Origin: Mycobacterium sp. UM_CSW
Lineage (GTDB): Bacteria; Actinomycetota; Actinomycetes; Mycobacteriales; Mycobacteriaceae
Direction: 5' to 3'
DNA: 64,000 nt
Assembly (NCBI RefSeq): GCF_000455205.1
Contig: NZ_AUWQ01000066.1
Location: 1-64,000, forward strand
Shown: positions 19,844-21,801 of the stretch, one piece after another
Layout of the letters: every line of letters starts with the position of its first letter
How positions within the stretch are numbered: position 1 is the first letter of the stretch
The notes under the pieces: model-generated
Databases searched by the model: none
Told to the model about the DNA's origin: nothing
What the model saw: the letters and a program-made list of their open reading frames with translations, nothing else
Translations under genes and position numbers: made by a program

Positions 19844-21565
19844 TCACACGGTGCCATTTCCCCCATCGGATGGCTCTTGCTGCGTTGGTGTGTCGCCGCT
19901 CCACGTGCTCGGAATCATCGGCATGCGCGGGCTGCCGTCGAAGGCATCGTCGGCGAGCATGGTCAACCCTGCCGGTCCAGCGCCGGTTTTGGTGGCGATT
20001 CCGGCGAACCCCTGAGGCGCGGCGCCAATTGCCGATGCCGCCGCCGCGTCAACCGGGTCTTCGCCCGCATTGCTTGAGTCGTCCAATTCCATGTATTCGT
20101 AACCGCGCCCGAGCATCTGCGTCCTCGTGCGCCGGCGCCGCTGCGTTCTGTTCTTTTCCATTGGTGTCGCCGCGGTCGCGGGCGCCGCGGCGCTGTCGAG
20201 TTGCGGCGCCTTCTTTCGGGCCCTGCCGGCCACCGCCGCGCCGGCAACCGCGCTCAGGTCGCCCACCAGATAGGCGAAGCCTTCCATGCCCACACCGGTA
20301 CCCGCCCCGGTCATCGTCGGTGGGGTGGCCGACGGCGGGGGCGCTGCGGGTGTAGCGGCCGGCGCGGTGGCCTGCACCGGAGCCGGCGTCGGAGAAGAGG
20401 CGGGGGTCGGGATGCTGGGCGACAGCGCAAGGACCGGCGGCATGATGGGCGGCGCGACGGGGGGTACCGGCGGCAGGGCGGCCAGTCCCGCCAAGCCGGC
20501 GAGGCCAATCGGCGCCACCGCGCCGGCGGCCAACGCCACTATCGGGGCGGTTATCAGGGGCACGAAAACCGTCAAGACCACGGCAGTCTGCTCGAGCAGC
20601 GTCTTGAGCAATGCGATGGTGTCCGTGATGATCGTGCCGACGGCTTCGACGGTGGTGAACAGGATGGTGAAACCGATCGTCGCGGGATCGCCGCTAGCGA
20701 GCGCCGCCGTCAGATCCAGTCCGATAAAGAAGAACGTTTCCGACAGATACGCGACATACGAGCCGATATCCATCGGGTAGCCCAGGGCGAACGCGATGTT
20801 GGACGGACTGAGGAAGATCAGTGGGTTACCCAGCAGGGGCAGGTAGGGATCAAACCCCGAAAACATCGCCGCGAAGAAGGGATTGTTGTACAGCGCGTTG
20901 CTCAGCGGTTCTAGGACGTTGTTCCAGTAGTCGACGAAACCAATCTTCGTCAGCCAGGCCATCACCTGGTTCTCCGTGTCGGGAGGCAACGGGAAGGCCT
21001 GGTAGAACGCTTCCACCAGCGCATGAAGATTCACGATCTTCGGCGCCGCCGACACCTGCGGTGACGAGGCCACGGCGGCGGCCGAGACCGCGTGGTAGAT
21101 GCTCATCACGGTCGCGGCCTGGATCCACATCCGTGCATAGTCAGCTTCATTCAGTGCGATGGGAATGGTGTTGATGCCGAAGAAATTTGTCCCCAGCAAC
21201 GCCGCGTGGGTGGCGTGGTTGGCGGCCAGCTCGGCCAGGGTGGGCATCGCAGCGAGGGCGGTGGTGTAGGCGGTGGCCGCAGCTTCATGTCGGACGGCCG
21301 TCGCCGCACTGTCAGCGGCGGCCAGCGCGAGCCAGGCAATATGGGGGCTGTGGCTGGCCACATACGCCGCCGCGCTCGGGCCCTCCCATGCCCCGGCCTG
21401 CACCCCCGCCATTAGCGCGGTCAGCTCCTCGGCCGACTCGGTGTACGCGATGCTCAACGAGGTCCACGACTCTGCCGCGGCCAGCAGCGGACCGGGCCCC
21501 GGCCCGCTGTTCAGCAGTGTCGAATGGACCTCTGGCGGTGAAGCGATCCAGATTGGGCCGGTCAT
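19844..21565 (-). CDS. ppe2: PPE protein of the PPW subfamily, PPE2-like
   Basis: A 573-residue PPE protein. The PPE motif is at residues 10-12, the ESX-secretion WxG turn at 60-62 (WEG) and the PPE domain covers about 1-180. A hydrophobic central region (about 285-400) and a Pro/Ala-rich stretch follow. The C-terminus has a basic run QRRRR (about 475-479), GFAGIAT (519-525) and PMIPSTW (549-555), the PPW signatures. The N-terminal MTGPIWIASPPEVHS, the basic run before LGRGYEY and the overall plan closely resemble M. tuberculosis PPE2 (Rv0256c), as I recall that sequence. Translation is set at ATG 21565. The gene has no PE partner here. Its leader is a cobalamin riboswitch, so it should be expressed when B12 is scarce; a role in corrinoid or cobalt uptake is an inference. 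Confidence 0.88.
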   Translation of the reverse strand: MTGPIWIASPPEVHSTLLNSGPGPGPLLAAAESWTSLSIAYTESAEELTALMAGVQAGAWEGPSAAAYVASHSPHIAWLALAAADSAATAVRHEAAATAYTTALAAMPTLAELAANHATHAALLGTNFFGINTIPIALNEADYARMWIQAATVMSIYHAVSAAAVASSPQVSAAPKIVNLHALVEAFYQAFPLPPDTENQVMAWLTKIGFVDYWNNVLEPLSNALYNNPFFAAMFSGFDPYLPLLGNPLIFLSPSNIAFALGYPMDIGSYVAYLSETFFFIGLDLTAALASGDPATIGFTILFTTVEAVGTIITDTIALLKTLLEQTAVVLTVFVPLITAPIVALAAGAVAPIGLAGLAGLAALPPVPPVAPPIMPPVLALSPSIPTPASSPTPAPVQATAPAATPAAPPPSATPPTMTGAGTGVGMEGFAYLVGDLSAVAGAAVAGRARKKAPQLDSAAAPATAATPMEKNRTQRRRRTRTQMLGRGYEYMELDDSSNAGEDPVDAAAASAIGAAPQGFAGIATKTGAGPAGLTMLADDAFDGSPRMPMIPSTWSGDTPTQQEPSDGGNGTV

Positions 21566-21663
21566 CGGAGACGACCGAATTCGAAAGTGATGGTTCGACA
21601 ACGAGGTTTCGGCGCCATGACAGGCCAGCTCTCTCGGGGTACTCCGCCCCGGGTAGCAGGACA

Positions 21664-21801
21664 CGATGACGCGAGTCTCCTGGCTCTCGGATCACTGCTC
21701 GCCTCGCCTTCCGACCGGTGGCCGTGGCTTCGTGAGGTTCGCTCCCCGATGACAGTGGCGGGACCGCGCCGGATTCGCACCGGCTTCCTGCGTCGTCATC
21801 G
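21664..21801 (-). promoter_or_regulatory. Cobalamin riboswitch in the leader of the PPE2-like gene
   Basis: Read on the minus strand, the 138-nt element has the full B12-aptamer layout. P1 is an 8-bp stem (cgatgacg 21664-21671 with cgtcatcg 21794-21801). It then shows ggtgcgaatccggcgcggtc, cgccactgt, ggaaggcg, and the B12 box gagagccaggagact (21674-21688). The last P1 base is 98 nt before the PPE start, leaving room for an expression platform; a GGGG/CCCC hairpin lies in that space. Binding of adenosylcobalamin should lower expression. The M. tuberculosis PPE2 operon also has a B12 riboswitch. Confidence 0.93.

What the first reader, a model, noticed from the sequence alone, without database searches (positions are those of the whole stretch)
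19844..21801. Cobalamin riboswitch controls a lone PPE2-like gene
The aptamer is complete: 8-bp P1, the conserved core and the B12 box. The downstream gene is a PPE-PPW protein with a PPE2-like N-terminus and basic stretch. In M. tuberculosis the B12 riboswitch stands before PPE2-cobQ1-cobU; here the PPE gene is alone, while cobQ lies 24 kb away and no biosynthetic gene follows. That uncouples the PPE from corrin synthesis and argues that the PPE itself responds to B12 shortage, for example as an outer-membrane route for corrinoids or cobalt.
Basis: partly seen in the sequence, partly recalled or inferred. Interest (0 to 1): 0.85.

Follow-up and report, generated by a model that had tools for sequence, protein, structure and literature searches.

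The report
B12-switched PPE, probable corrinoid uptake gene
A vitamin-B12-sensing RNA switch in a mycobacterium sits before a single PPE surface-protein gene, and the same switch-plus-gene pair recurs across the genus, sometimes at the end of a B12-type importer operon, which makes this PPE type a candidate for the unknown route of B12 through the mycobacterial outer membrane.

Summary
In detail: a full cobalamin riboswitch (RF00174, 96.2 bits) precedes a lone PPE-PPW gene. "Lone" is the rule. A hydrophobic middle domain of this PPE, searched by itself in 198 genus genomes, gave 67 genes in 57 genomes: 61 have RF00174 directly upstream, 3 end a riboswitch-PBP-permease-ATPase-DUF7676-PPE operon, 3 have none. 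cobU follows in four of these loci, cobQ/cobU-like pieces in two more; so the switch travels with the PPE. The reverse is not strict: some switch-led PPEs lack the domain (L201, L045). The relay is conserved: 34 leaders with 17 different uORF-PPE distances keep one frame. Best reading: a B12-repressed, probably ESX-3-exported outer-membrane part of corrinoid uptake; cobalt is the main rival. No uptake was tested. The riboswitch-ppe2 pair and its variable link to cob genes are in print; I saw the importer operon and the genus-wide frame conservation in none of the papers found.

The parts
21653..21833 (-). Cobalamin riboswitch aptamer; P1 arms 21801-21794 and 21671-21664, B12 box 21684-21675
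   Evidence: RF00174 96.2 bits, E 1e-22, full length; arms and box read
21635..21651 (-). Hairpin CGGGG-CGGAGUA-CCCCG between aptamer and uORF, the presumed L13 part of the expression platform
   Evidence: Near-invariant in most aligned leaders (13 of 68 leaders gave no match to the pattern); similar in place to the hairpin described for Mtb ppe2 in PMC11260477 (sections 20 and 23 read)
21562..21618 (-). uORF of 18 codons (MAPKPRCRTITFEFGRLR), stop overlapping the PPE start as AUGA
   Evidence: one of 34 such leaders in the set examined
19844..21565 (-). PPE-PPW gene, 573 aa
   Evidence: PF00823 and PF18878; N-terminal domain closest among solved structures to PPE4 (219 bits)
20531..20983 (-). 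Middle domain of the PPE (residues 195-345), hydrophobic, typical of riboswitch-linked PPEs
   Evidence: Alignments A1 and A3; genus search; hydropathy
19047..19805 (+). cbiZ, adenosylcobinamide amidohydrolase (corrinoid salvage), convergent with the PPE
   Evidence: PF01955 1.4e-52; present in 8 of 198 genus genomes
17856..19022 (+). nicT nickel/cobalt transporter
   Evidence: NF052500 615.5 bits
45899..47317 (-). cobQ, cobyric acid synthase, without a riboswitch at cut-off
   Evidence: TIGR00313 460.8 bits; one search found only one RF00174 in the window
7764..11049 (-). cysG-like, cobB and cobO
   Evidence: Pfam domains; gene names inferred from the domains and recalled gene order

Best explanation
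This is a B12-repressed uptake gene. When cellular cobalamin is low the aptamer is empty, the start region of the small uORF is open, the uORF is translated, and ribosomes that stop at the AUGA overlap restart on the PPE; when cobalamin is high, the uORF start is masked and the PPE is off (shown by others for M. tuberculosis ppe2 in reporters; inferred here from the same anatomy). The PPE, whose N-terminal domain is closest to PPE4 of ESX-3, is then most likely exported by ESX-3 and placed in the outer membrane, where its hydrophobic middle domain helps corrinoids across, ahead of an inner-membrane importer (inferred). Sub-confidences: riboswitch real 0.99; PPE regulated through the uORF relay 0.85; role in uptake of something B12-related 0.7; corrinoids rather than cobalt 0.5.
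For: Riboswitch. uORF with AUGA overlap. Relay conserved: 34 leaders keep one frame relation over 17 different uORF-to-PPE distances (23-173 nt), stop always overlapping the PPE start; counting every first ATG after the hairpin, 19 of 21 distinct distances are 2 mod 3, binomial tail 8e-8 with distances treated as independent. 11 leaders are 'direct': the PPE start itself sits where the uORF start would be. Association: the middle-domain search in 198 genomes found 67 genes in 57 genomes; RF00174 lies directly upstream of 61 (46, 4, 11; recounted). Control: loci of 10 of 11 paralogous PPEs chosen hold no RF00174. Operon: in L162, L175 and L135 the PPE follows riboswitch, PBP, FecCD permease, ATPase and DUF7676 (domains on L131 and L175), with an ATGA overlap onto the PPE in L162 and L175. 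A PBP/FecCD importer gene lies in the fetched stretch of 10 of the 57 genomes, including G083 (L255), one of the three without a riboswitch. Regulon: of 146 riboswitch loci, the first gene is metE in 50, a PPE like the window's in 45, a PBP in 28, not assigned in 23 (identity by representatives). Own genome: the other RF00174 hits lead to metE, an FhuF_C protein and, at 28.8 bits (below cut-off), CbtB-CbtA. All 8 genomes with cbiZ have a middle-domain PPE, against 57 of 198 overall (relatedness not corrected).
Against: No uptake, location or binding has been measured. AlphaFold models were useless (pLDDT 36.8 and 50.2), so a channel is not shown. 47 of 57 genomes have no PBP/FecCD importer in the stretches fetched, which were of unequal length, and the window's genome has no match to the L131-type BtuF (negative without a positive control). 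The domain is not the whole story: PPEs right behind a switch without it exist (L201; L045; the PPE-SVP genes of L178, L206, L215). cbiZ adjoins the PPE only in the window and its sister L034. NicT next door and CbtBA behind a weak switch fit cobalt as well, and a weaker switch also faces a biosynthetic gene, cobN, in L131. In Mtb, genetics named BacA as sole determinant of cobalamin uptake, and a marinum screen found no specific outer-membrane importer (PMC4428469 and PMC11237697, passages). Three of 67 middle-domain PPEs have no RF00174 at cut-off. Leader MFE is no lower than that of shuffles.
Confidence: 0.5

Rival explanations
1. The PPE is a cobalt route (the 'CbtG' proposal): B12 shortage opens cobalt entry for de novo synthesis.
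For: CbtG was proposed by Rodionov 2003 (seen only as cited in PMC4428469). NicT is two genes away. The window carries cobQ, cobB and cobO. CbtB-CbtA in the own genome lies behind a weak RF00174 match.
Against: In three genomes the PPE ends an operon of a PBP/FecCD importer, the type used for corrinoids and siderophores, not for free cobalt (substrate class from family knowledge). cbiZ, the salvage gene beside it here, acts on imported corrinoids (family knowledge). NicT may serve the hydrogenase.
Confidence: 0.25
2. The PPE is a secreted host-acting or surface protein that uses B12 as a cue of its surroundings; uptake is not its job.
For: PPE2 of M. tuberculosis is reported to suppress host NO and ROS (PMC12713380, passages).
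Against: The pair is spread over 57 of 198 genus genomes and stands with importer genes in 10 of them. The basic stretch is shared by riboswitch-free PPW paralogues.
Confidence: 0.13
3. The PPE is a passenger that invaded an old riboswitch-cobQ-cobU operon (suggested in the discussion of PMC11260477).
For: In M. tuberculosis ppe2 is followed by cobQ and cobU and co-transcribed with cobQ (PMC11260477, passages). cobU follows directly in four loci here (L112, L116, L118, L132) and cobQ/cobU-like pieces in L246. L127 has a cobQ-like piece behind a run of N on the PPE strand.
Against: Rows labelled cobU/cobQ-next are 5 of 69 middle-domain rows and need two changes on the tree (quick tree, many open forks; L127 was labelled 'other'). 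No riboswitch locus searched with CobQ and CobU had either as its target without a PPE (163 oriented loci, about 30 with only 1.5 kb downstream). The riboswitch stays with the PPE in 61 of 67.
Confidence: 0.04
4. The leader is a decayed switch in this species and the PPE is expressed constitutively.
For: Single-strand folding energy is not better than shuffles. The Mtb ppe2 switch has weak AdoCbl affinity, Kd about 446 uM (PMC11260477, section 20).
Against: Full-length 96-bit match with intact P1, core and box; hairpin and uORF frame kept between the window and its sister L034 although the uORF differs by 15 nt.
Confidence: 0.06

Closest known systems
ppe2 riboswitch-uORF-PPE2 relay of M. tuberculosis (PMC11260477: abstract, passages and sections 13, 20, 23 read)
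   Same: Compact cobalamin aptamer, hairpin, uORF with AUGA overlap, PPE gene
   Different: Here no cobQ-cobU follows; uORF 18 codons, starting 35 nt after the aptamer; neighbours are cbiZ, nicT and a hydrogenase locus
BtuB-BtuFCD corrinoid uptake of Gram-negative bacteria
   Same: Works like (inferred): B12-riboswitch-repressed outer-membrane part plus PBP/permease/ATPase importer, in one operon in L162, L175, L135
   Different: The PPE has no TonB-dependent barrel domain (only PPE and PPE-PPW in Pfam); not a BtuB family member. Whether the importer carries corrinoids is untested; its permease scores best with BtuC but under the NCBIfam cut-off
PE/PPE nutrient transporters of the mycobacterial outer membrane, e.g. 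PPE51 (search listing with starts of abstracts only)
   Same: PPE family; proposed passage of small nutrients
   Different: No uptake shown here; control by a riboswitch; I did not compare the sequences
PPE4 of ESX-3 (6uuj; the PE5-PPE4-EspG3 complex is named in PMC11395111, passages)
   Same: N-terminal PPE domain, 219 bits over residues 1-177, against 72 or fewer for PPE15 and PPE41
   Different: Only the N-terminal domain compared; no PE gene was seen next to the PPE in the window

Membership tests
Cobalamin riboswitch RF00174 | Score above the gathering cut-off over the full model | tested here: met
   96.2 against 31.5 bits, positions 1-189
Cobalamin riboswitch RF00174 | Binds cobalamin | not testable with these tools
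   Needs in-line probing or a reporter
ppe2-type relay switch | uORF between aptamer and PPE with NUGA stop/start overlap | tested here: met
   21618-21562, ATGA; 34 leaders of the genus
ppe2-type relay switch | GGAA junction motif next to P3 | tested here: met
   GCAGGAAGCC in the aligned core
ppe2-type relay switch | L5-L13 kissing loop | tested here: inconclusive
   L5 UGCGAAU and L13 CGGAGUA could pair over three bases (by eye); no clear covariation over the leaders
ppe2-type relay switch | PPE translation depends on uORF translation | not testable with these tools
   Shown only for Mtb in PMC11260477
PPE-PPW subfamily | PF00823 and PF18878 above cut-off | tested here: met
   197.4 and 52.7 bits
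PE/PPE outer-membrane transporters | Outer-membrane location and loss of uptake on deletion | not testable with these tools
   No experiment; structure models too poor
BtuB (TonB-dependent receptor) | Plug and beta-barrel domains | tested here: not met
   Only PPE and PPE-PPW found
ESX-3 substrate | PPE domain recognised by EspG3 | tested here: inconclusive
   Best solved match is PPE4; binding not tested

The most novel reading that the evidence does not exclude
PPEs with this middle domain are the missing outer-membrane cobamide importers of mycobacteria: a TonB-free functional counterpart of BtuB, exported by ESX-3, turned on by B12 shortage through a riboswitch-uORF relay, and in some species encoded in one operon with a BtuFCD-type importer.
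Probability: 0.4. Interest if true: 0.88.

Novelty: new variant of a known kind. Interest (0 to 1): 0.64.

Why it matters
[quoted passage not shown] A gene type defined by sequence, kept directly behind a B12 switch in 61 of 67 cases and found in importer operons, makes that question directly testable with deletions in species that have the operon. It also bears on the published idea that ppe2 invaded a cob operon: the genus data suggest the opposite order.

Tried and rejected
Protein search with the whole PPE over the genus gave no usable answer twice; replaced by the riboswitch census (fetched) and by the middle-domain search. A sequence profile of aptamers in mixed orientation and a second from five aptamers only were not used for the counts; riboswitch places were then taken from the coordinates. 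AlphaFold of the whole PPE (pLDDT 36.8) and of the middle domain (50.2) were too poor for a fold search, so none was run. Kissing-loop covariation: no clear signal. MFE of the leader: z 0.38, uninformative. Middle domain in viral contigs: 31 stretches matched a pattern, none confirmed. Plasmids: 11 records with a match, none covering 80% of the PPE. The product of open-frame chances over the 17 uORF lengths under mononucleotide shuffles is only about 1e-4, so the frame test, not openness, carries the argument. The co-occurrence of cbiZ with a middle-domain PPE (8 of 8, hypergeometric 3e-5) is not corrected for relatedness; four of the eight (G046, G048, G118, G131) group together in the tree.

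Rows dropped: eight 3-kb loci that were refetched or are the window were left out of the printed tally of 155 (PPE 54); the 146 and 45 used here remove the ten genome-contig loci (L034-L043, all PPE) and put the window back, by hand. In one search, 13 ORFs were printed as 'domain without switch': one was misjudged by my geometry (L126), one is the window itself, three are the operon cases, seven have their own switch and one (L044 = G148) has none. In one search one leader (L210) gave no PPE start and 13 gave no hairpin match, so 54 of 68 leaders were classed further (34 relay, 11 direct, 6 other, 3 hairpin without ATG); the six 'other' include two with stop and start overlapping by one base (L112, L118). 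One search cut its list of matches, so the regulon counts are for the better-scoring hits only.

Full report
Observation. The whole window was scanned against Rfam: two matches, one of them RF00174 at 21833-21653 on the minus strand with 96.2 bits and E 1e-22. The gene behind it, 21565-19844 minus, is a PPE with a PPE-PPW end. The stated cobQ is real, 24 kb away, with no riboswitch before it at cut-off.

What was missed locally. Between aptamer and PPE lies an 18-codon uORF, ATG at 21618, whose TGA overlaps the PPE ATG. This is the design for which termination-reinitiation was shown in M. tuberculosis (PMC11260477; abstract, passages and sections 13, 20 and 23 read). Convergent with the PPE on the plus strand are nicT and cbiZ; divergent from it are hypA, hypB and a NiFe hydrogenase. 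cysG-like, cobB and cobO stand at 7764-11049. So the PPE is alone as a transcription unit, but not far from corrinoid and cobalt genes.

Own genome. Four RF00174 hits were found. Besides the PPE they lead to metE, to a protein with an FhuF 2Fe-2S end, and, for the hit below cut-off (28.8 bits), to CbtB-CbtA and an alpha-ribazole-phosphatase-like gene. None leads to the cobQ, cobB or cobO of the window.

Genus survey by riboswitch. RF00174 was searched in 198 genus genomes: 175 have a match at E 0.001, and 146 genomes have one over cut-off. I read 146 of the better-scoring hits as loci (a different 146). The first gene behind the aptamer was metE in 50, a PPE like the window's in 45, a periplasmic-binding lipoprotein in 28 (two similarity groups of 14), and unassigned in 23 (with the ten genome-contig loci taken out and the window put back by hand; identity by representatives). 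Among the unassigned are three PPE-SVP genes (L178, L206, L215), a PE gene (L172), and FecCD permeases (L008, L013, L022).

Genus survey by protein. Riboswitch-linked PPEs share a hydrophobic middle domain (window residues 195-345) that three paralogues from riboswitch-free loci lack (L047, L050, L052). Among the fetched loci, 148 PPE ORFs scored over 100 bits with the N-terminal profile: 79 had neither switch nor domain, 53 both, 13 the domain without a switch by my geometry, 3 a switch without the domain (the 13 are resolved under Tried and rejected). To avoid choosing by riboswitch, I searched the domain alone (alignment A3) in the same 198 genomes: 67 genes in 57 genomes. RF00174 at cut-off lies directly upstream of 61: 46, 4, 11 after fetching 14 doubtful places (recount). 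In three more (G191, G071, G117 = L135, L162, L175) the PPE follows a riboswitch-led run of PBP, FecCD permease, ATPase and DUF7676. Three have none: a second tandem copy in G016, G083 and G148. The seed rows of A3 were riboswitch-linked, so the search could favour the linked clade; the three exceptions show that it does not exclude others. Some hits are tandem switch-PPE-switch-PPE pairs, so the 67 are not independent. The converse is looser: L201 and L045 have a PPE of this N-terminal type right behind a switch and no middle domain. As a control, 10 of 11 loci of other PPEs hold no RF00174 (the eleventh is L045).

Neighbours. By eye from the cluster strings the pair stands in at least eight different gene neighbourhoods. 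cobU follows directly in four loci and cobQ/cobU-like pieces in L246; these five rows need two changes on a quick tree. A sixth locus, L127, has a cobQ-like piece behind a run of N. A PBP/FecCD importer is in the fetched stretch in 10 of 57 genomes: G016, G022, G049, G069, G071, G073, G101, G117, G191 and G083; G115 has a BtuF-like fragment that I did not count. The flanks were unequal, so this is a lower bound. CbiZ is rare (8 of 198 genomes), and all eight have a middle-domain PPE (57 of 198 overall), though next to it only in the window's genome among the eight and in the sister L034.

Relay. Of 68 leaders examined, 54 were classed: 34 have a uORF ATG 31-35 nt after the start of a near-invariant hairpin and a stop overlapping the PPE start as NUGA; 11 have the PPE start itself in that place; 6 are other and 3 have no ATG. 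The 34 show 17 different uORF-to-PPE distances (23-173 nt), all 2 mod 3. Since any PPE starting with M-T brings its own NUGA, the overlap alone proves little; the constant frame over varying length is the evidence. Counting every first ATG, 19 of 21 distinct distances fit (binomial tail 8e-8, distances treated as independent). Peptide sequences differ between groups, which points to the act of translation and not the peptide. The sister L034 has a uORF 15 nt longer in the same frame.

Mechanism. Shown by others for Mtb: B12 binding, translational OFF control, need for the uORF. Shown here: the same anatomy in the window and its conservation. Inferred: B12 shortage turns the PPE on; export by ESX-3, since the N-terminal domain is closest among solved structures to PPE4 (219 bits against 72 for the next); and a part in carrying corrinoids over the outer membrane. 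The operon with a BtuFCD-type importer is the strongest hint for corrinoids; NicT, CbtBA and the resident cob genes keep cobalt open.

Known and new. In print: the riboswitch before ppe2, its retention in other mycobacteria with a variable link to cob genes (PMC4428469, passages), ppe2 apart from cobQ-cobU in M. marinum and M. avium (PMC12713380, passages), the CbtG proposal (as cited in PMC4428469), and the uORF relay (PMC11260477). The same review says that the operon association and the presence of the switch are not strongly conserved; for PPEs with the middle domain the present count says otherwise about the switch. I saw no report of a PPE in a riboswitch-importer operon or of the frame conservation in the listings or in the passages read; that library lacks most subscription journals, and no supplement was opened. 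The Mtb PPE2 protein was not fetched, so that it carries the same middle domain is assumed, not tested.

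Noticed in passing
window 23298-23371 plus: hya RNA (RF02992, 82.6 bits) overlaps the start of the hydrogenase small-subunit ORF at 23310; also found in the sister L034.
   Followed up: no
L231 8350-8481 (own genome C127): A third RF00174 hit over cut-off in the own genome precedes, at about +37 nt, a protein with an FhuF 2Fe-2S end; possibly a corrinoid or siderophore reductase.
   Followed up: partly
L233 (own genome C55:136246-136426): A weak RF00174 match (28.8 bits, under the cut-off) precedes CbtB-CbtA and an alpha-ribazole-phosphatase-like gene.
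   Followed up: partly
L178, L206, L215; L172: B12 riboswitches 162-250 nt before PPE-SVP genes and before a PE gene, which looks like separate recruitment of PE/PPE genes to B12 control.
   Followed up: partly
L045 3035-3215; L201: Switch-led PPEs of the same N-terminal type that lack the middle domain.
   Followed up: partly
L176, L194, L199: Middle-domain PPEs behind an aptamer with a different 3' part and a 156-232 nt gap, unlike the compact ppe2-type switch; the switchless L256 has a WXG100 pair behind the PPE, L199 a similar pair by eye.
   Followed up: no
L114, L127, L152, L160, L245, L247: Tandem riboswitch-PPE-riboswitch-PPE arrays, one copy with a weaker aptamer (34.6-50.2 bits).
   Followed up: partly
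L131 4352-4497, L119 4399-4512, L114 279-397, minus strand: A second, weaker RF00174 on the opposite strand beside the btuF switch, in L131 facing a CobN gene (PF02514).
   Followed up: partly
L175 8430-8990, L162, L135, L114, L125: DUF7676 (PF24724) recurs next to the importer genes and the PPE; a candidate small partner of the uptake system.
   Followed up: partly
window 19047-19805: CbiZ is rare in the genus, 8 of 198 genomes, and all eight carry a middle-domain PPE.
   Followed up: yes
window 40159-41025 plus: Another PPE (288 aa) matching PF00823 best from profile position 61 on, with a weak PPE-SVP match.
   Followed up: no
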